Origin: Aporrectodea caliginosa
Lineage: Eukaryota > Annelida > Clitellata > Crassiclitellata > Lumbricidae
Assembly (NCBI GenBank): GCA_020284085.1
Contig: JACEVL010000155.1
Span: 1,454,788-1,518,787, forward strand
Direction: 5' to 3'
DNA length: 64,000 bases
In this document: positions 23,201 to 63,328 of the stretch, piece after piece
How positions within the stretch are numbered: the first letter of the stretch is position 1
Layout: every line of letters begins with the position of its first letter
Notes under the pieces: generated by a model
What the model was told of the DNA's origin: nothing
The model's input: the letters and a program-made list of their open reading frames with translations, nothing else
Databases searched by the model: none
Position numbers and translations under genes: made by a program

Positions 23201-26200
23201 AAATAACAAAGAATTATCAATTAAAGGCACTGAGGCATAAATACAGTAGAGGTCTGAGGAGGGTAGTCCTTCATTTGGTCACCTGTCTGCTGACCAAATA
23301 GCTGGAACCAGAAATAAACTAATTTGCATATACAGTGCAATGACTTTATTACAGAGCAATTTCCAGTTGCCTACATAGTTGTACAGGCAAAATTCTTGCA
23401 CTGCTCCATTTCTCTACAAGTCTATAACAGATAATCCTTTATTTGTTTCCATGCCCATCACTACAAAAGTGCTGACTCACATGAGAGATTACTCCAAAAC
23501 CTGGGAACCTGGGTTTTTACTGCCACCAGACCTGTAAACCCGGGTTTAAAATAAAATACAGCCCGTAAAAACAAAGTTTTTACTATATCCATCTAGTATC
23601 CTATAATGCGTCTTATGAAGCAGTTACCTCTACAAATATATAGTCCGCGTTCATTTTACGTCATAGCGTGCGTTTAATCAGGCAGCGCGCCCGTTTTTGT
23701 TGCGGCCAATGGCAACGCTGCGTATCGGAAAATTTGAGTCCCCGATTCGAAAAGTTTAGTCCCCGATTCTATAAGCTAGCCTTTTTAGGGGGAGCTGAAA
23801 TTTTTATAGAATGAAGTGTCTGCGAGGGAGAGTCTATCTGCCAAGTTTCAGGACGATTGAATGATTGTAAGTGATCGAATGAGTCGTCGCAAGATTTGAC
23901 TTTTAGCCTGTGGCTCAAACATAGTTCACCTTGTCACCTTGTGCCGTCGATTCGCTGAATCCTAGCGACCGTCATAGTCAGCCTTCTCCATGTGTTCCGA
24001 TCTCTCGTCGCCTCTCTCAGCTCCGAAATGTTCATCATCATCGTCTCGTGTATCTCCTCCATCCATCTCTTTCTTGGTCGTCCTCTTCCTCGTCTTCCCT
24101 CCCCACACGCCAGCATCATCTCCTTTTCCATGCCGTCCGCCCGCATCACATGGCCAAAATACATCACTTTTTGTCTCGCCGCTCTTTGTCTCAATGTCAT
24201 CTCTCCTCTTAAGTGTCCTATCTCTTCCAGTATATGTTCATTTGTTTTCTTCTCAGTCCAGAGGACCCTCAGCATTTTCCTCCAAATCCACATTTCGCAT
24301 GCTTCGATTTTCTTCTCTAGTGCTTTGGTTTTTGTCCATGCCTCGCACCCGTACAGCACCACTGGTATTATCATTGCTTTAACAATTCTTGTTTTCGTTT
24401 CCAGGCTCACCGCTTTATCCTTCCATATCTTTTCCAATCCCTGCATTGCTCCTTTTCCCAGAGTAATTCTTCGGCGTATCTCTCTCTCGCATCCCCCTCC
24501 CTATCTATTGTAGCTCCCAGGAAACAGAAGCTCGATACCACCTCAATCTCTTCTCCGTCTACTTCGAAGCTTCTCCAGCTCTCTGTGGTCATAATTTTAG
24601 TCTTTTTATGTTGAAGTACAATCCTGCTTTCTCACTTTCAAGCCTTAGTTTCCTGATGTTGTTTTTCAGTACTTCCTTTTTCCCCGCCAACAGTGTTGTA
24701 TCATCCGCATACCTTAAGTTGTTGACAACCTTTCCAGCTATCCTCACTCCTTCCGCCTCGTCATCAAATCCTGCCTCTCTCATAATCCTTTCTGCATATA
24801 GAATGAACAGGTACGGTGATAGTATACATCCCTGTCTTACTCCCTTCTTTATTTGAAAACTTGCTGTTTCTCCGTGTTCCGTCCTCACCACTGCTATCTG
24901 GTCGGAATATAAGTTCCTGAGGAGAGTTATCAGGTGCACAGGTATTCCCATTTCTCTCAAAGTCTTCCACATGAGATCGTGGTTTACACAATCAAATGCC
25001 TTGCTGTAGTCTATAAAACATAGGTGGACCTCTTGTCCAAATTCCCTCTGTCTTTCCATTATCCATCTCAGGTTTGCAATATGATCTCTTGTGCCTCTCA
25101 AACATAGTTACATAGTTACATATATTCAAGATTTCCGTAAGTTAAACTAGATGGATAAAAAGCATTCGGGTCCGCATTTCCTACTATGCCATGAACACCA
25201 TTAATTTGTTACTCATTACTATACTTACTTGAGCAGAAGTAGTGGACTGTGTAAACTGGCAGCGCTTTATTCCATCCATGTCTGGGATGGCCATATTGCT
25301 TATTATGGTGATCAGTCGCCATCTGACTGATGGAAACCTATACCACTAAAGTATATATATGATTGCCCTAACTCATTCACTTCTAGTAGCAGCGATCACT
25401 GAATTTTGCATATTTCCGGTAAAAATTCACACCTTTTTCAAAATGTTGTTTACGTAAATGTAAAAGCCATCTCCTGATATTGCTCTTGTGATAAGTCTGA
25501 ATTCCAACTTTTAGAAATGCAAATCAGTGTAGTCTAGATTTTCTGTGAATCGGGCAACATAGATTTATTAATATCAACAACGCCAGAAATGCGCTTCTGC
25601 CTAATGGTGCATAGTGGCGCTGAACGACCTGAAGTAATACCAAACCTTTTGCGTGCCTTCTCCATGGGGTCCTGGGGCGACTAGATGGAGTTCTGGGTGA
25701 ACAATTACTATCAGTGACGCACACTTCTATCATTACGCCGTGAAGCTATAAACAGGGGCTAGGTAATCCCGTACTTTAGGTTGGTAAATTATTTGAATAT
25801 CTTCAATACCGAACTTCATGTTGGTAAGTAAGCAATCTACCTATGTCCATGATAACTATCGTCAATCCCGCTTCCATTTCATCGAAAATTTGTTTTAATC
25901 AATCCAGCTTCCATTTCATGAAAAAAATTAGCCAACTTCTATTTAACCCAACAAATATTTTTCATCAATGAAACTTTTATTTAAGCAAAGAACTATTCTC
26001 ATGGGTCCAGCTTCTACTTACGGAAACAATTATTTTAATCATTCCAGCTTCTATTGCATCAAAAACATAGTTTCATCAATCCAGCTTCTATTTACGGTAA
26101 AAATTATTTCGATCAATCCAACTTCTATTTAAAGACAGAAATGGTTTCATCAATCCCACTTCGAGTTAGTGAAACAATTTTTTTCCTTAATCCAGCTTCC

Positions 26201-26979: not shown

Positions 26980-28297
26980 AAATTTATAAAGTTCTACTGA
27001 CCCATTTCCATCACGCCGGTATTATGCAGATTGTTAGAAAAACTTGTAGTGCGCCTATATATCTATCCCATCCTCACTAATCACGAACTGAATCGTCCAT
27101 TTGCTGACCAATTCGCCTTCAGGCCATCTGGTTCTACCTCTGCCGCTCTTATAGCCATTTCTGACTTCATTCTCAGCTCACTTAATTCTGAACCCTATGT
27201 CCGTGTTATTTCTCTAGATTTCTCTAAGGCCTTTGATACGATCAGACACTCATACTTGGCTGAACAATTATTGACCTCTCTGCCTATCCTAACTAATATA
27301 TTCAACTGGATTATCTCCCTCCTGAGAAATCGTAGTCATTGCACCAAGTTCCGTGGACTTTTATCTGCCTTGGCTGAAATCAATGCCAGCATAATTCAGG
27401 GTTCTGGCATGGGTCCTGCAAACTTAATTCCTGGTTGCCATCTCCGGCCTAAAACCTCTATATAGCTTTAAATCGTATTTTCAAGTATGCTGATGACTGC
27501 ATTCTTGTGATCTTGGCTTCTAACATCTCCACTACAGATGCAGAATTAGATCATATTAGTACCTGGGCTCGTAAATGTAATCTCCACCTGAACCACTCAA
27601 AATCCTGTGGGATTGTATTTACCAAACCAAAAGTGAATCTTATACAGGCCCCTCCAGTCCTGCCTGGCATTAAAAGGGTTGTGCCATTGAATATACTGGG
27701 CATTGAGATTACCGAAAAGTTCGGTTTTTCCCCATATGTTCAAAGACTTTGCATTCGGGCCAAGCAATCTCTTTATGCCCATCGTATTTTGATCTCACAT
27801 GGGCTTTCGGGGTCAGGCTTCATGATGTGGTCAGGGCTACCACTATCAACCGCATGCTATACTGTTCCCAAGTATGGTGGGGCTTTGCCAGTAAGCAGGA
27901 ACTTGACTCTCTGAGCGCTCTGGTCCACAAGTTGGTACGCCTTGGTTTCCTACCTAAATCTGTCCCCACCTTTGAGGAGCTTTGCAAAAAAGCTGATAAT
28001 ATAAACCTCTTTAGAAACATCTTAACAAATACTAGCCACACCCTTCACGACCTTCTCCCCTCGGTCAATTGCACTGGTCATGACCTGCGCCCACGCTCAC
28101 ATAACCGTGTTCTCCCTAGATTTGATTCCCTTACCAGGCGTGGCTTCTTAGCTAGGATGTTGTACAGTTAGACATGTTTTCTAGTTGACTTAATTTTCCT
28201 CTAATTTCTTTGTACATAAATTATTTCTGACTTTGTATGTAAAGCGCTGAGCGTTTGCTTGCGTTCAATAAAGAACATTCTTACTTACTTACTTACG
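26980..28297 (+). mobile_element. Jockey/CR1-group non-LTR retrotransposon, copy 1, degenerate, (TTAC)n tail
   Basis: The plus strand reads PISITPVLCRLLEKLVVRLY, FADQFAFRPSGSTSAALIAI, VISLDFSKAFDTIRHSYLAE, IIQGSGMGPAN, KYADDC (about 27,484) and a C-terminal region ending SLTRRGFLARMLYS. The frame is interrupted by a stop just before PISIT and by single-base shifts near 27,430 and 27,810. The 3' end is an AATAAAG followed by CTTACTTACTTAC. It lacks the endonuclease half, so it is 5'-truncated. It occupies the gap between the NEMF start and the macoilin stop. It is about 80% similar by eye to the copy at 62.2-63.3 kb. Confidence 0.9.
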
Positions 28298-54951: not shown

Positions 54952-55213
54952 ATTCCACATATATCCGGTCATTCGGTAAACAAAAACTGCCGTCGGGTCA
55001 ATGAGGGAGATTGCTAACAAAATAACTGAAAACAAATTCTGCTAAGAATCGATTTCCCTCCAATAAACTCCTTAAAATCCACGCAAAATCAACGCATCGC
55101 CATTTATAGAAATCATGGCGCAGACTACAGCCGCAGACTAAATATCTAAATACAGGGTCCGTGTTTAAATGACGTAAATAAAACGCTACGTCTGAATGTT
55201 ATTTTCCACAAGT
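54952..55213 (-). other. Macoilin 5' flank (5' UTR/promoter expected), cut by a transposon
   Basis: The 260 bases upstream of the macoilin ATG should contain its leader and core promoter. TGACGTAAA and CTACGTC (about 55,170-55,192) resemble CRE half-sites, but this is weak. The transposon begins at 55214, so more distal promoter elements are displaced by 5.4 kb. Confidence 0.5.
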
Positions 55214-56064
55214 GAGTGGTCCGGGGGAAAACAGTGCTAACAAGCTGTTGGATAGTTTTTTGTAACGGGCGCTTCTTTGATCACAGTGTTTTAAAAAAAA
55301 TTGAGTGGCGCTGAATCGGTATATATAGCCCTGTTAGCAAACTTAAAGTTGTTTAAACAAAACACAGTGGAATGTTCGATGAAGTAAATTTGTATTGTAG
55401 GTGAAAAATAACTTTAAAGCTGATAGCACTATTTTCCGGCGGGCATCTGTTAGGCTAAGCAGCAAGTTGTGTTGTTAGCACTATTTTCCGTCTGGCATCT
55501 ATTAAGTTAAGCAGCAATTAATGCTGTTAGCACTATAATGATACCGGCAAAATACTCATAAACCATTATTATTATCCCATAACATTGTTTTCCCATCAAT
55601 AGAAACACGTATGACATTATTTTGAGTGAAACAGTAGCCATACAACAGTTACTCATAAACAATACACAAGTCATTATAATATTAGGTGACATAACAGTAA
55701 CTGTTACTGTGTTAATAATAACACTGCTGATAATCAAAAGCAGACTTTGCTATTGCTTATTCACATTAAAGTTCACGGTGACTATAAAACCTGCATAGAA
55801 AAGTCATTGCACAAAAATTATGATTAGAGAAACAATAACAATGCTACCAGAAGGTAGAACATAAAAATAATACTGCTAGCATTGCACATAGCATATAGCA
55901 TAATGACTGAAACATAAGTCATAAAAGCTAATGAATCAAACAATAGTTACTTCATCTTGTAAGCAATTAACACAATGTCACTGTGTGATGATCTGTCACT
56001 GTTTACTGTGTTTAGTCATCATCATCATCATCACATAGTTCATCATCTAGCATTTCAACATCTG

Positions 56065-59000
56065 CTACTCGGCTTTTTTCAGCCCGAATGCTGTTGTAGA
56101 AGCCGTGATGAACTTGAGGTATGAAAGGCAACAGAGACTTGATATCATCCACTTTTTTTTGGGCAATTTTCTTTCAGATGTACACTTTGTTGGCACAATC
56201 ACCTGGTCCAGTCTAGCTGGACGGCCACGTTTCACCATGCTGACTTCTTGCCATGGTTCAACATCATCATGCGAGTATTTAATTTGCATGGAATAGAGCT
56301 GATGTTTGGTGAATCTAAACTGACAGACTGATTGAAATTTGACTTTCTGTCCATCAACGGTCACTTTTCTGTTCATCAAACATTTTGCAACAACATCCAA
56401 TGACTTGAAGTCATTCAATTTCATTGCATGCACAATGAAGGGATTTGCACGTCTTGCATTTGAAATAATTTTCACATATTCATCTGGAGAATATATCTGC
56501 TGATGTTTCCTCACACTGCGCTCAATGTCACCAAAATCTCTGTCGCATGGTAGCATTGTATGGCCAGATACTGGAAAGTAATGTACAATTTCATCAAACT
56601 TGTCTGTCACAATTAAGTATTGCCAAAGGGCCATAATTTTCAGATTTTTATTTTGACCCCCGCAGTTATCGGAAAAGACAGCTAGGTTGCGACTTGGTAT
56701 TGGCTGCTGAAAGTATTTAAGAAGACAGGAGCCAATCTCATCTGCTCCACGACCTCCAACTGTTTCAGGCCATATCATCATGTTTGCCTTATTGCCTCCA
56801 CAATTGTGAACAGCTAAATTATATGTGTACAGCTTCCGCTTATAAAAGGCAGGGCCGCATGACAATTTTGGTGTAGGTAGAGCCTGTTCAAGGTCGAACG
56901 CTATTGTGTGAAGCTCTTGTGGCTTGTCGTGTGCAGTGCTCGTTAAGTTCCGAAGTAAATCGAAGGCCTTGTTTGCTTTGGTTTTGTGAGACTGCCACTG
57001 CTGCTCACAGGTGGCTCTATCAGCGTCACTTATATTTGACTTCATTTTCACATCATACTGGTCACAGACTTTGCATGTATCTGTTCTTGGTGTTGCAAAG
57101 CCGATGTTATATTGTTCACAGAAGGTTCTTCGGTAAAAGTCCTCTGATACTGGGTCCCAATGTTTTTCCGTACAGTGTTCCTTGTACAGTCTGTACATCT
57201 CACTTATTGTCAAGTCAGATCCAAGATATGTCCTGTCGATGTTATCGCGTCGGCTGTAGTGACTCTGATGTCGTGGGAACATTTCAATATGACTCTTGAC
57301 CTGCTGCAATCGATCTTCAGAATATCGATGCGGTCTGTTACAGTGCTTTCCTCTCTGATCTGGTCGAGGCACGCCCGCACCACTTGCAATTTGCTTCTGA
57401 ATATTTCCAAGCCGACCTCGATTTTGATGCAAACCGTGAAAGGATAGGAATGATTGCTTACATACACGCGCAGTGGTGCCATCTGCATTTGTAACATGAT
57501 ATGAAAATGAAGTCTGTCTTCTCGATTCAGCGCTTGCAGTGTACCGTCTCAATGGGTTATAGCTGTTAATATTTCCATATAAATAGGCGTTCTGGCTGTT
57601 GAAATTTCCGAGGTTCCAAAACGATTTGCATATGTTATCGCGATGCTCTTCCTTGACTAACTCGAAACATTTACGCTTACAGTTGCAGTCGGGTCCAACT
57701 GTTTTAGCAATGTGCAGTACTCCAGAAGAGTTGATATACTGTTGTCCAGCATTTTTCAGTCGACTTCGTTTTTCTTTTATTCTTGAAGCAATATCACTTT
57801 GACGTTTTCGAGTTTGAGGTTTATGGACAGCTTCGTGCTCAATAGTATCTTCCATCACGTGCATTAACTGGCTTATATTAGCTGAAGCAACGTTGTTGTT
57901 CGCCTGGTTGTCGGTTGCAATGTTATTCTGTGGCTGTTCTATACCAAGTGCAGACACGGAGTTGTCGGTTGTGGTGTTGTTTGATCCAGACATGCTTTCG
58001 GTTGCTGTATCGGCTGATGATTGGCTAGATTCTGTACTTCCCGTCTCAACAGCTGAATCTGATATTGACTGGCCAGTCTGTGTATTTAAATACTCTTCCA
58101 GTGGTATCAACAGTAAAGTATCACGCCCATCATTCAGTACAGCTGACAAAACAACAAATGTGTTGCCACCAATTACTACATTTTGTCCGACACATAGACC
58201 ATTTATTAAGTTGAGTAGTTCAGCCTGTTCTTCGGCACCGAATGTAGCGGTGTTGTCGCTAGCGACGTTGTTTGCTGGCTGCTCGACACCGACTGTACAC
58301 ATGATGTTGTCCTCGACACCGACTGTAGCCATGATGTTGTCGGTCTGGTTGTCGCTAGCGACGTTGTTAGCTGGCTGCTCGACACTGACTGTACACATGA
58401 TGTTGTCCTCGACACCGACTGTAGCCATGATGTTGTCGGTCTGGTTGTCGCTAGCGACGTTGTTTGCTGGCTGCTCGACACTGACTGTACACATGATGTT
58501 GTCCTCGACACCGACTGTACACATGATGTTGTCCTCGACACCGACTGTAGCCATGATGTTGTCGGTCTGGTTGTCGCTAGCGACGTTGTTTGCTGGCTGC
58601 TCGACACTGACTGTACACATGATGTTGTCCTCGACACCGACTGTAGCCATGATGTTGTCGGTCTGGTTGTCGCTAGCGACGTTGTTAGCTGGCTGCTCGA
58701 CACTGACTGTACACATGATGTTGTCCTCGACACCGACTGTAGCCATGATGTTGTCAGTCTGGTTGTCGCTAGCGACGTTGTTAGCTGGCTGCTCGACACT
58801 GACTGTACACATGATGTTGTCCTCGACACCGACTGTAGCCATGATGTTGTCGGTCTGGTTGTCGCTAGCGACGTTGTTAGCTGGCTGCTCGACACTGACT
58901 GTACACATGATGTTGTCCTCGACACCGACTGTACACATGATGTTGTCCTCGACACCGACTGTAGCCATGATGTTGTCGGTCTGGTTGTCGCTAGCGACGT

Positions 59001-60285
59001 TGTTAGCTGGCTGCTCGACACTGACTGTACACATGATGTTGTCCTCGACACCGACTGTACACATGATGTTGTCCTCGACACCGACTGTAGCCATGATGTT
59101 GTCGGTCTGGTTGTCGCTAGCGACGTTGTTAGCTGGCTGCTCGACACTGACTGTACACATGATGTTGTCCTCGACACCGACTGTACACATGATGTTGTCC
59201 TCGACACCGACTGTAGCCATGATGTTGTCGGTCTGGTTGTCGCTAGCGACGTTGTTAGCTGGCTGCTCGACACTGACTGTACACATGATGTTGTCCTCGA
59301 CACCGACTGTACACATGATGTTGTCCTCGTTGTTAGGTGGCTGCTCAGTCCCAACTGCACACATGGTGTCAGCTGCTGTATCATTGTCATCTGATTCATT
59401 AGATAATATCAACTTAATTGCTTGCTGCAACGAGTAGCGTTCTCTTTTGGTTGATTGATCCACGTTCTGAATAATACACAAGTAATACACAAGTAATAAT
59501 ATTTGTATATTATTATAATATTTTATTCAGTTCTGCTATGTATTCTTGTGGAAAAACCAAGGTCAATGATATTAAAACAATGAGAGTCATTGAGAGTCAA
59601 ATGGAGACAGATATTATAATAATAATAATGAATATCCGTGCCTGCGACACTCATGATTGTATTGTGAATGATAAGTCACGTTACTACCTGTGTAATAGTA
59701 CGAACTTCATTACACTAAACTAGTCTTCATTATAATACAAAATGATATGAGTATATTGTTAATATTTTACTATTGATTATTGTTAACAGAAGACATAATA
59801 GCAAAAATGTTCATTTTTGAATCAATTCAGCATGAAGGATAATAATTATTAAATTTTATTTTGCAATAAAATTTCAGTGGAGGGAGTATCTTGTTGCGAA
59901 TACAGGTTTAAATAAAAGTTTGGGAATATAGTGACATGCCACACAAACGCCGCTAATGTTTGTAGGTAAATAGTGCTATGCCACATACACTGTGTTAATG
60001 TATGTAAGAAGACAGTGCTATGTGTGTACATTAAACACAATCTTGTATTATTTTGGGTCATAAATCACTTTTGTAACTCGTGTTAGGGGCAGTTACACAC
60101 CATGTGCTACCTGACTCGTAGTACCTTGGAAATTATTTTAAAAAAGCTAACACTGAGATCAGTGAGATCAAACTTACCTGCTTTTTGGACGTGTCAACCA
60201 GTATGTTAGGCTGGTTGCTACTCTTGTAACGAGCTTCCGCGAATCTTGCAGGCACCTTTCGTTCCCGTTTTGGCCTGTCAGCCAT
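56065..60285 (-). CDS. Putative DDE-type transposase with N-terminal tandem-repeat region (DNCGGQNKN family)
   Basis: Two exons: 60285-60178 (MADRPKRERKVPARFAEARY...) and 59466-56065, joined in phase through a GTAAGT donor and TTCAG acceptor, giving 1,169 residues. Joined residues about 80-440 are tandem repeats. The rest has a Cys cluster (CNCKRKC), FPRHQSHYSRRDNIDRTYLG, a CKVC pair, FDLEQALPTP, YKRKLYTYNLAVHNCGG, SDNCGGQNKN and GHTMLPCDRDFGDIER. Related uncharacterised animal proteins share the SDxCGGQN and PGHT blocks (I believe the DUF7869 group; this needs a search). D894, D969 and E1018 are plausible catalytic acids with RNase-H-like spacing; this is inferred. Its position between matched TIRs supports a transposase role. 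The reading frame ends early because of an A8 run at 56153-56160 (see findings). Confidence 0.8.
58245..59340 (-). repeat. Coding minisatellite in the transposase gene, 96/126-bp units
   Basis: Ten copies of a block ending QPANNVASDN are arranged head to tail. Each unit combines NIMATVGVED, an optional NIMCTVGVED, and NIMCTVSVEQPANNVASDNQ, so units are 32 or 42 residues. Order from the N-terminus: four long, three short, one long, one short, then a final variant running into unique sequence. Units are nearly identical at the DNA level. All lengths are multiples of three, and at least two other frames also stay open, which produces long false reading frames on both strands. Confidence 0.95.
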
Positions 60286-60603
60286 TGTGTGTATTTTTGA
60301 ACAATACTAAAAACAATACTAACAGAAAACTCAATAAAAAAAGACTTGTTCAATCCAGTGATGATCATAGCACTGTCTTCCAACAAATCACTAGAATGCT
60401 ATGACACATAGCATTATCTTCTCGGAAACTTGACTCATCTCACGCAGGGGGAAAACCAAGATTGTTTATTTTTAGCAATACAGCGTGCCTTCTCAAGGCT
60501 GCTGATTTTATGCTAGGTAAATCCCGTGTATGGGAAGAGAATGGTAAAAAGAAGTCATTAATATTAAAATTGTGGGTTAGCACTGTTTTCCCCCGGACCA
60601 CTC

Positions 60604-62184
60604 AAGTACAGGCCTATTTTCTTAACAACAGCAATGCACCGAGCCTTAAATTCAACTTTTATTATTTTATATGGGTTGGTATGATATAATATAACATTCT
60701 GCGTATGTTTATTATTGCCGAATTTGTGATAATTGAACTGACGACATACGATATCATCGTGAAGAGTGCCTATTTTGATGGCTAGCGACCTCGTTGACAG
60801 CAACGACATAATCGAGATCTGCATCAGTTGCCTAATAGGCTAATAAACAGCTGCATGGTTCCGGTTTTTGTTTAATTCGAGCACGCTGCTTAGTTGTTTT
60901 ATAAAAAATAAAAAATAATTTACTGTATAACTTCATGCTGCTTAACGTTACGGTAGCCTATAGCTATTTGCAGTTCGTCATGTTTTGTTCTGCAATAGTG
61001 TCCGTCCCAACCGTTTTTTTAAGTGGTGGTGACAGTCAATAAACCACTTGTGGCCATGTGGTGGAAATTTTTTGCGACTTGACATTGTCATTTTTTAACA
61101 AATTCAAGCGACGACAATTATTATTAACGGGGTAATATAGGGCCTACTTAACTGTCGCATTGCTAATATATATAACATGTCAGATTCACGTTAACATCAT
61201 TTATTGTTTTATATGGCATGATATTTGTTGACGTCATTCATCGATCGTGTGACGGATAAAGCATATGCATAGTTGCATACTGAATTCGTATATGTGGGAA
61301 GGGGAGAGGAAAAGGATGGGAAGAAAGAGGAAGGCTCGAGGGATTGCATGGTCACCACCATTCGGGGGAGTTAAGCCCTTGAATCGTGTGGTGAAACGGT
61401 GTCGAGACAGATATAGATAGCCTATAGGTTAATTAACAGCAATTGTGGGTTCAATTAATTAAGTGTCTAGCTGTCATGATCGATTAGCCATCCTGATCCC
61501 TCGGATTCTGACCTGGAAGTTGGAACCGTTCGAAGATGAACCAGAACCGATCGAGCTCTCGAGGAATTATAAGGCCTATAGGCTATTATATAGCGGCGCA
61601 ATATTGTGAACGCTAAGAAATTTCGGAAATTTACAGTAACAAACCTGCATCTACGTAGGCCTATACGGCAATTGCGTGCTGCAGGCCTAATCGTAAATAA
61701 CAAAATTAACCCGTTCATGCTGTTGCACGTAGGGTCCATAGGCTATGGATTCTGAAAGAATTCGCTCAAACAGACGCATTGTTTATTTTGCGCAAATCTT
61801 GTTTATATATATAGCCTCATTGTAATTTATCGGTCCGTATACGCCTACGTACGTATACAAGCATGCGTACAGCTGCACATTAGCCTACATTACAGCGAAC
61901 ATAGGGGCCATTAATACTTCCGTGATATAGGGCCTACTTCCGCGATAATAATGCAGTAGGCCTATTTTGTGACTCGAGCACGTACGTACGTTCTCAAGTT
62001 CAATGAGTAGGCCTAGTTTCAGTTTAACGACCCTGTGTGATAACCAATATCATTTTAATTAGCGTCGCCCTCCTCCTTCATCCAGGCTTGAGACTGACAC
62101 TGCCAGAGTAGGCCTATATGTAGGCCCTATAGGCCTACCAGCAGTAGCGGACGGAGTTCAATACAGTCAAAATACGAATTCTTT
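60604..62184. other. Intergenic stretch rich in TAGGCCTA, no gene recognised
   Basis: No convincing coding exon or RNA gene was found. The stretch is denser in CpG and in TAGGCCTA-like palindromes than the rest of the window. It could hold the 5' flank of a gene further right. Confidence 0.6.
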
Positions 62185-63328
62185 ATAGTCCCCAGTATTC
62201 TTAACTCGCTTAAATCTGAACCTTATGTTCGCCTTATTTCTCTAGATTTCTCCAAGGCCTTTGATACAGTCAGGCACTCTTACTTGGCCGATCAACTGGC
62301 CTCTCTACCTATACCTGTTAATATCTTCAACTGGATTCTCTCCCTCTTGAGCAATCGTAGTCATTGTACCAAGTTCCGCGGCGTGATCTCTTCCTTGGCT
62401 CACATCAATGCTAGTATAATACAGGGTTCTCGCATGGGCCCAGCAAACTTCTTAGTGGCCATCTCTGGTCTTAAACCTCTCCACAGCTTCAATTATATCT
62501 TCAAGTATGCTGATGATTGCTATCTTTTGATCTTGGCTTCAAATATTTCCACCACGGATGCAGAATTAGATCACATTAGTGCCTGGGCTCGCAAATGTAA
62601 TCTCCACCTAAACCATTCTAAATCTAACGAAATTATCTTGACCAGACCAAATGTGAATCTTGAACAAGGTCCTCCAATTATACGTGGCATAAAAAGGGTC
62701 ACATCCCTGAATATATTGGGTATCGAGATTTCCGCAAAGCTCGGTTTTTCCTCCCATATCCAAAAGATTTGTGTACGGGCCAAGCAATCTCTCCACGCCC
62801 ATCGTATTTTAATCTCGCATGGGCTCTTGGGAGTCAGGTTATATGATGTGGTCCGGTCCACCACTGTCAACCGAATGCTTTATTGTTCCCAAGTGTGGTG
62901 GGGCTTTGCTAGCAAACAGGAACGTGACTCTCTAAGTGCTGTGGTCCGCAAGCTGGTACGCTTTGGCTTCCTACCAAAATCTTTCCCCACTTTCGAGGAA
63001 CTCTGTAAAAAAGCCGACCATGACCTTTTTAGAAATATCTTAAATAATCCCGGACATATTCTTCATTACCTACTACCCCCTGTCCTATATACTGGTCACG
63101 ATTTGCGCCCACGCTCACATAACCGTGTTCTTTCTAGATTTGATTCCCTCACCAGGCGTGGTTTCCTGGCTAGGATGTTGTACAGCTAAGCCATAATATA
63201 TAGTGTTTTTTTAGTTTACTATTTACTAACTTTTTCGCTACTATTTGATAACTTTGTATAACTTTGTATGTACAGCGCCGTGCGTTTGCCAGCGTTTAAT
63301 AAAGAACACACTTACTTACTTACTTACA
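62185..63328 (+). mobile_element. Jockey/CR1-group non-LTR retrotransposon, copy 2, (TTAC)n tail
   Basis: Same family as the copy at 27-28.3 kb but more severely 5'-truncated and with an open frame (62284-63189). It encodes LISLDFSKAFDTVRHSYLAD, INASIIQGSRMGPANFLVAI, the catalytic FKYADDCYLLILA, WARKCNLHLNHSKSNEIILT and ends LTRRGFLARMLYS. Usual QGS.LGP and YADD motifs are present, but the fingers domain and endonuclease are absent, so it cannot move by itself. AATAAAG and three CTTA units close the 3' end. Confidence 0.9.

What the first reader, a model, noticed from the sequence alone, without database searches (positions are those of the whole stretch)
55214..60603. Complete-looking 5.4-kb DNA transposon of an uncertain superfamily, carrying a DNCGGQNKN-type protein
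Perfect 28-bp TIRs, exact AAGT duplication and a single two-exon gene define a clean unit. The protein belongs to a group usually annotated only as uncharacterised animal proteins. Finding it bounded by TIRs links that group to transposition with a 4-bp target duplication.
Basis: partly seen in the sequence, partly recalled or inferred. Interest (0 to 1): 0.9.

Follow-up and report, generated by a model that had tools for sequence, protein, structure and literature searches.

The report
Young jumping gene with DUF7869 transposase
This is a 5.4-kb "jumping gene", likely of an animal, found in eight copies that are almost identical where compared, whose protein, catalogued only as a domain of unknown function, is predicted to be its own cut-and-paste enzyme and has relatives inside likely mobile elements of bacteria.

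Summary
55214-60603 is a DNA transposon with perfect 28-bp TIRs and an AAGT duplication. Eight copies were found in the same genome, on average 0.12% apart over their first 2.7 kb. All seven with both ends have exact 4-bp TSDs, six of them AWWT. All 15 TIR matches (up to 3 mismatches) belong to these copies.

The gene encodes a PF25273/DUF7869 protein whose predicted fold (mean pLDDT 90.9) matches integrases and Mos1, with three near-invariant Asps. Two more DUF7869 families here have exact AWWT TSDs in all 6 intact copies read at both ends. In bacteria, 7 of 11 DUF7869 loci lie between inverted repeats 2.0-2.6 kb apart.

DDD, 4-bp AWWT TSD and bacterial kin fit Sola, group Sola2; no reference Sola protein was on hand, so membership is inferred. 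The window's clade is a deep branch. New: a likely function for DUF7869, an unnamed bacterial IS-like group, and an in-gene repeat of 2 to 42 units. None of the eight copies has its whole gene in the relatives' frame.

The parts
55210..55213 (.). left target-site duplication AAGT
55214..55241 (+). left TIR, perfect 28 bp
55214..60603 (-). whole transposon, 5390 bp, one predicted gene on the minus strand
55415..55536 (+). subterminal repeat (52 bp x 2.3) holding two near-copies of the TIR's inner 16 bp (55422-55437, 55474-55489); possible extra transposase binding sites (inferred)
   Evidence: (4 matches in the window including the two TIRs, 0.10 expected)
56065..59466 (-). exon 2 as read in this copy (ends in the shifted frame)
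56179..57873 (-). conserved 565-aa region with the predicted RNase-H-like catalytic domain and D-D-D triad
   Evidence: PF25273; AF2; folds; conservation
58252..59325 (-). in-frame tandem array (96/126-bp units); 24 NIM[CA]TV units in this copy, 2 to 42 among the eight copies
59467..60177 (-). predicted intron (GTAAGT...CAG)
60178..60285 (-). predicted exon 1, 36 codons from ATG
60576..60603 (-). right TIR, perfect 28 bp
60604..60607 (.). right target-site duplication AAGT

Best explanation
This is a TIR transposon that multiplied recently and whose single predicted two-exon gene encodes a predicted RNase-H-fold DDD transposase (DUF7869) that likely cuts the element out and pastes it into AWWT sites, as Sola2 elements do. 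Shown: TIRs, exact 4-bp duplications, eight near-identical copies, and homology of the protein to other DUF7869 proteins including bacterial ones. Inferred: the transposase binds the 28-bp ends and perhaps the two TIR-like subterminal repeats. Asp327, Asp402 and Asp444 (numbering of the 565-aa region) would hold the metals for cleavage and strand transfer. The two joining events would be staggered by 4 bp, and gap repair would make the duplication. Copies with a damaged gene were presumably moved in trans. Filing it under Sola2 is inferred from features, not from a reference sequence.
Against: No reference Sola2 protein could be compared. The window clade is joined to the bacterial and other DUF7869 proteins by a long branch and shares 15-22% identity with the other families of this genome. 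The window's own TSD, AAGT, departs from AWWT. None of the eight copies has the whole gene in the relatives' frame, so no intact source gene was found. pTM is 0.65. In three of the five bacterial units whose flanks were read the flanking 4-mers are not identical. No transposition was observed, and no empty site could be searched.
Confidence: 0.8

Rival explanations
1. The window's clade is a separate, unnamed transposase superfamily or subgroup, sister to Sola2, that shares its targets but would be split off by a formal classification.
For: The 24 window-group rows form one side of a branch with 100/100 support; that branch is about 3.2 changes per column long (1.43 + 1.75 on either side of the midpoint root). 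It has its own motif GHTxLPCDRDFG in place of GHTKFxPDxxFG.
Against: Profile-profile alignment is unambiguous (probability 100, E 5.6e-41, 473 columns). TSD preference is the same and TIR letters are loosely similar.
Confidence: 0.15
2. The DUF7869 gene is a passenger, and the element is moved by another transposase encoded elsewhere.
For: None of the eight copies has the whole gene in the relatives' frame, so movement in trans is likely for some of them.
Against: It is the only long ORF in the unit apart from other-frame readings of the repeat array. Families A and F, with different ends, have the same arrangement. The predicted fold and triad are those of DDE/D transposases.
Confidence: 0.03
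3. It belongs to another superfamily with duplications of about 4 bp (Ginger, Chapaev-type CMC, Kolobok or piggyBac).
For: These make TSDs of about 4 bp (recalled). One of the 120 listed relatives (P0102) carries a precomputed rve domain beside DUF7869, and one bacterial relative has a weak, sub-cut-off match to PF07592 (E 0.018).
Against: The window protein has no rve or other named transposase family in Pfam up to E 10. None of the 13 exact TSDs is TTAA.
Confidence: 0.02

Closest known systems
Sola2 elements, e.g. Dictyostelium fasciculatum DFa-1 to -3 and Polysphondylium pallidum PPa-1, -4, -5 (PMC3627910, passages)
   Same: TIRs, 4-bp AT-rich duplications (AWWT), one large transposase of several hundred residues.
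   Different: Those families also carry Fanzor1; this element does not appear to. An in-gene repeat array is not mentioned in the passages read.
Bacterial DUF7869 units found here (L063, L065, L067, L068, L069)
   Same: Homologous protein (four of the five aligned) with FD/WD, DNCxGQNKN and GHTKFxPD; ~40-bp TIRs with AAAA at positions 16-19 (15-18 in the window; one arm per locus compared); AT-rich flanking 4-mers.
   Different: Compact (~2.1-2.4 kb), single ORF, no array seen. Flanking 4-mers identical in only 2 of 5.
IstA, retroviral integrases, Mos1 mariner transposase (solved structures)
   Same: RNase-H-like catalytic fold by prediction.
   Different: 6-15% identity in the VIA-align rows shown, 11% in the IstA rows; different ends and targets (established knowledge).

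Membership tests
Sola superfamily | DDD transposase with RNase-H-like core | tested here: met
   By prediction only: fold and three near-invariant Asps; catalysis not tested.
Sola superfamily | 4-bp TSD | tested here: met
   7 of 7 two-ended copies of 8 found; C381 has one end only.
Sola superfamily | TIRs of 11-1124 bp; most elements 2-9 kb | tested here: met
   28-bp TIR; 5390 bp. C484 is 10,576 bp with a nested insert.
Sola2 group | AWWT target | tested here: met
   6 of 7 in this family (the window copy is AAGT); 6 of 6 intact copies of families A and F.
Sola2 group | sequence similarity to reference Sola2 transposases | not testable with these tools
   No Repbase or Dfam; no supplement look-ups allowed; Bao 2009 and Yuan and Wessler 2011 not held.
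Ginger | Gypsy-type integrase (rve) domain | tested here: not met
   No rve match in the window protein up to E 10. One relative of the 120 listed, P0102, has a precomputed rve domain beside DUF7869.
Kolobok / piggyBac | TTAA target (piggyBac: PMC7351741, start of abstract; Kolobok: recalled) | tested here: not met
   0 of 13 exact TSDs are TTAA.
Chapaev (CMC) | CMC-type transposase | tested here: inconclusive
   No Pfam match, but no dedicated reference comparison.

The most novel reading that the evidence does not exclude
DUF7869 defines an ancient transposase family spanning bacteria and animals. It includes an unnamed, widespread bacterial insertion-sequence family (~2.1 kb, ~40-bp TIRs, AT-rich 4-bp targets). 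The window's clade is a distinct animal-side subgroup outside the named Sola1-3 groups, recently or still jumping, with a fast-changing repeat domain inside its transposase.
Probability: 0.25. Interest if true: 0.65.

Novelty: new member of a known kind. Interest (0 to 1): 0.45.

Why it matters
Two searches here found hundreds of DUF7869 proteins (262 and 551), and none of the listed names calls one a transposase. Showing that the domain is the predicted catalytic core of a TIR transposase would let them be re-annotated. It also supplies young, low-copy elements with defined ends on which this transposase type can be tested. AWWT-like targets and loosely similar TIR letters in bacteria and animals offer a way to study how one transposase type persisted across domains of life.

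Tried and rejected
Third catalytic residue. Glu451 looked likely from 80 of 83 close relatives. In the ten other proteins it is Lys while Asp444 stays invariant, so Asp444 was chosen.

Short derivatives. No TIR match with up to 3 mismatches lies outside the eight copies, so none were found; more diverged ones were not sought.

Viruses. 37 stretches of viral contigs matched the peptide patterns, but none encoded a relative.

Literature. Searches for DUF7869, PF25273 and several peptide motifs found 0 papers, as did one on Sola with AlphaFold. The library holds only open-licence PMC papers. Bao 2009 and Yuan and Wessler 2011 are not held; what I know of the Bao 2009 abstract is recalled. Papers cited were seen as passages only (PMC7351741: start of abstract in a search listing).

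Known families. Solved-structure sequences: no match to A3 up to E 10. NCBIfam: only two sub-cut-off matches (E 0.19, 0.038) for four bacterial proteins.

Not achieved, because the whole-genome search stayed unreachable: a protein search for other window-clade families, genome-wide TIR searches for families A, E and F, and an empty-site search. The host species was not identified.

Full report
OBSERVATION. The unit at 55214-60603 is real. Its ends are perfect 28-bp inverted repeats flanked by AAGT on both sides. A DNA search of the window's own 1.1-Gb assembly found eight copies on eight contigs; a ninth candidate was a 36-base match to the repeat array (the tool calls such counts lower bounds). 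A TIR search with up to 3 mismatches gave 15 matches and none to the reversed control: both ends of seven copies and one end of the eighth (C381, whose right end is lost).

TARGET DUPLICATIONS. They are AAGT (window), AAAT (C959), AATT (C613), ATTT (C66), AATT (C654), AAAT (C642, whose right end in window orientation lacks its two outermost bases) and AATT (C484): exact in 7 of 7 two-ended copies. C381 has AGTT at its only end. Six of seven fit AWWT; from the base composition of the flanks of four of these sites, p is about 5e-8.

AGE AND DAMAGE. Over the first 2.7 kb the copies differ by 0.04-0.22% (28 pairs, mean 0.12%), so the family spread recently. Some carry younger insertions: about 4.4 kb inside C484's right TIR and one in C959's exon 1, each with an 8-bp repeat, and about 0.67 kb in C642's exon 1. 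The in-gene array ranges from 2 to 42 units; the reading through it is open in 6 of 8 copies and broken in C613 and C642.

GENE. Predicted exon 1 (60285-60178) and exon 2 (from 59466) give a 1169-residue reading. Beyond a run of one base near 56153, the last ~28 residues differ from the C-terminal pattern of relatives, which is found in another frame. Four copies share this state (C154, C66, C654, C484), two read on in the relatives' frame (C613, C642) and two stop there (C959, C381). Taken with the array breaks, inserts and truncation, none of the eight copies has the whole gene in the relatives' frame. Whether some of this is assembly error at the base run cannot be told. The core matches PF25273/DUF7869.

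OTHER FAMILIES IN THIS GENOME. At least 134 DUF7869 matches occur (150 of 164 candidates scored; 0 of 14 control genomes), many in near-identical sets. Family A (ends GTGACGTGGTC...) was read at both ends in six copies. Four are intact, with ATAT, AATT, ATAT and AAAT duplicated exactly. Two (C185, C525) have damaged right ends, left 4-mers ATAA and AAAA, and no match. Family F (GTGATGCGAC...) has ATTT and ATAT in 2 of 2 copies read at both ends; a third was read at one end. Family E was read at single ends only: three right ends and one left end, all AWWT, and no end was found in one further stretch, L082. Together 13 of 13 intact two-ended copies of three families have exact 4-bp duplications, 12 of 13 AWWT. 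These families were chosen because their stretches were already fetched; several other DUF7869 families were not examined.

BACTERIA. A scan of one genome per prokaryote species found 42 pattern matches, 11 of which encode relatives. In 7 of 11 (L063, L065-L069, L071) inverted repeats of 39 nt or more flank the match about 2.0-2.6 kb apart. In four (L064, L070, L072, L073) none was recognised among the five longest listed. Of five whose flanks I read, two have identical 4-mers (L063 AAAT, L069 AATT). Three do not (L065 ATAT/ATGT, L068 ATAT/ATTT, L067 AAAT/ATTT), though all are AT-rich. Pfam finds DUF7869 in four of four proteins tested. A search with one of them found 551 relatives (only the 7996 candidates sharing most words were scored). 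None of the 120 listed is named a transposase; one is labelled chaperonin. 67 of these 120 have a longest contig of 1.9-2.5 kb and 91 of 1.9-3.0 kb, which would fit assemblies breaking at repeated elements.

TIR LETTERS. AAAA occupies positions 16-19 in the five bacterial TIRs compared (one arm each) and in families E and F, and 15-18 in the window. Mean matches to the bacterial TIRs beat shuffles for family E (0.04% as high), F (0.6%) and A (0.7%) unshifted. For the window this holds only when shifted by one base (0.2%; unshifted 6.1%). Three shifts were tried for each of four TIRs, so this is supportive only.

RELATIONSHIP. Profile comparison of A1 with an alignment of four bacterial and six other own-genome proteins (A3) gives probability 100, E 5.6e-41 over 473 columns. 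In a 42-row tree of chosen rows, the 24 window-group rows are one side of a branch (100/100) and the four bacterial rows another (100/98); the program warns of one long row, P0124. The named relatives are insects and one crab.

CLASSIFICATION. Sola: DDD transposase, 4-bp TSD, variable TIRs, bacteria to metazoa (PMC10741241, passages). Sola2: AWWT (PMC3627910, passages). A bivalve survey curated 14 Sola2 elements (PMC10294476, passages). The features fit Sola2; the sequence test against a Sola2 reference could not be made.

MECHANISM. Shown: structure of the unit, duplication, recent multiplication, homology. Inferred: binding to the TIRs and possibly to the TIR-like subterminal repeats at 55422-55437 and 55474-55489 (4 matches in the window including the two TIRs, 0.10 expected); two-metal cleavage; 4-bp staggered strand transfer; movement of damaged copies in trans.

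Noticed in passing
L063, L065-L069, L071 (bacterial records): Unnamed bacterial IS-like units of about 2.1-2.7 kb with DUF7869 relatives and inverted repeats of 39 nt or more (7 of 11 loci); 551 relatives in the protein collection, none of the 120 listed named a transposase.
   Followed up: partly
58252-59325: Tandem array inside the transposase gene that varies from 2 to 42 units among copies at most 0.22% apart over their first 2.7 kb.
   Followed up: partly
G000 copies C484, C959, C642 (L009/L031, L010, L015): Younger nested insertions: ~4.4 kb in C484's right TIR and one in C959, each with an 8-bp repeat (hAT-like, recalled), and ~0.67 kb in C642 flanked by ACGT.
   Followed up: no
56153-56160: Base run beyond which the C-terminal frame differs among copies: four share the window's state, two read on in the relatives' frame, two stop.
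   Followed up: partly
1076-2014, 24589-25107, 27001-28171, 62098-63189: ORFs that look like LINE reverse-transcriptase fragments (by eye).
   Followed up: no
P0126, P0158: DUF7869 proteins carrying misleading names in databases (RNA polymerase subunit; chaperonin).
   Followed up: no
P0102: A relative with a precomputed rve integrase domain beside DUF7869; could be a real fusion or a gene-model error.
   Followed up: no
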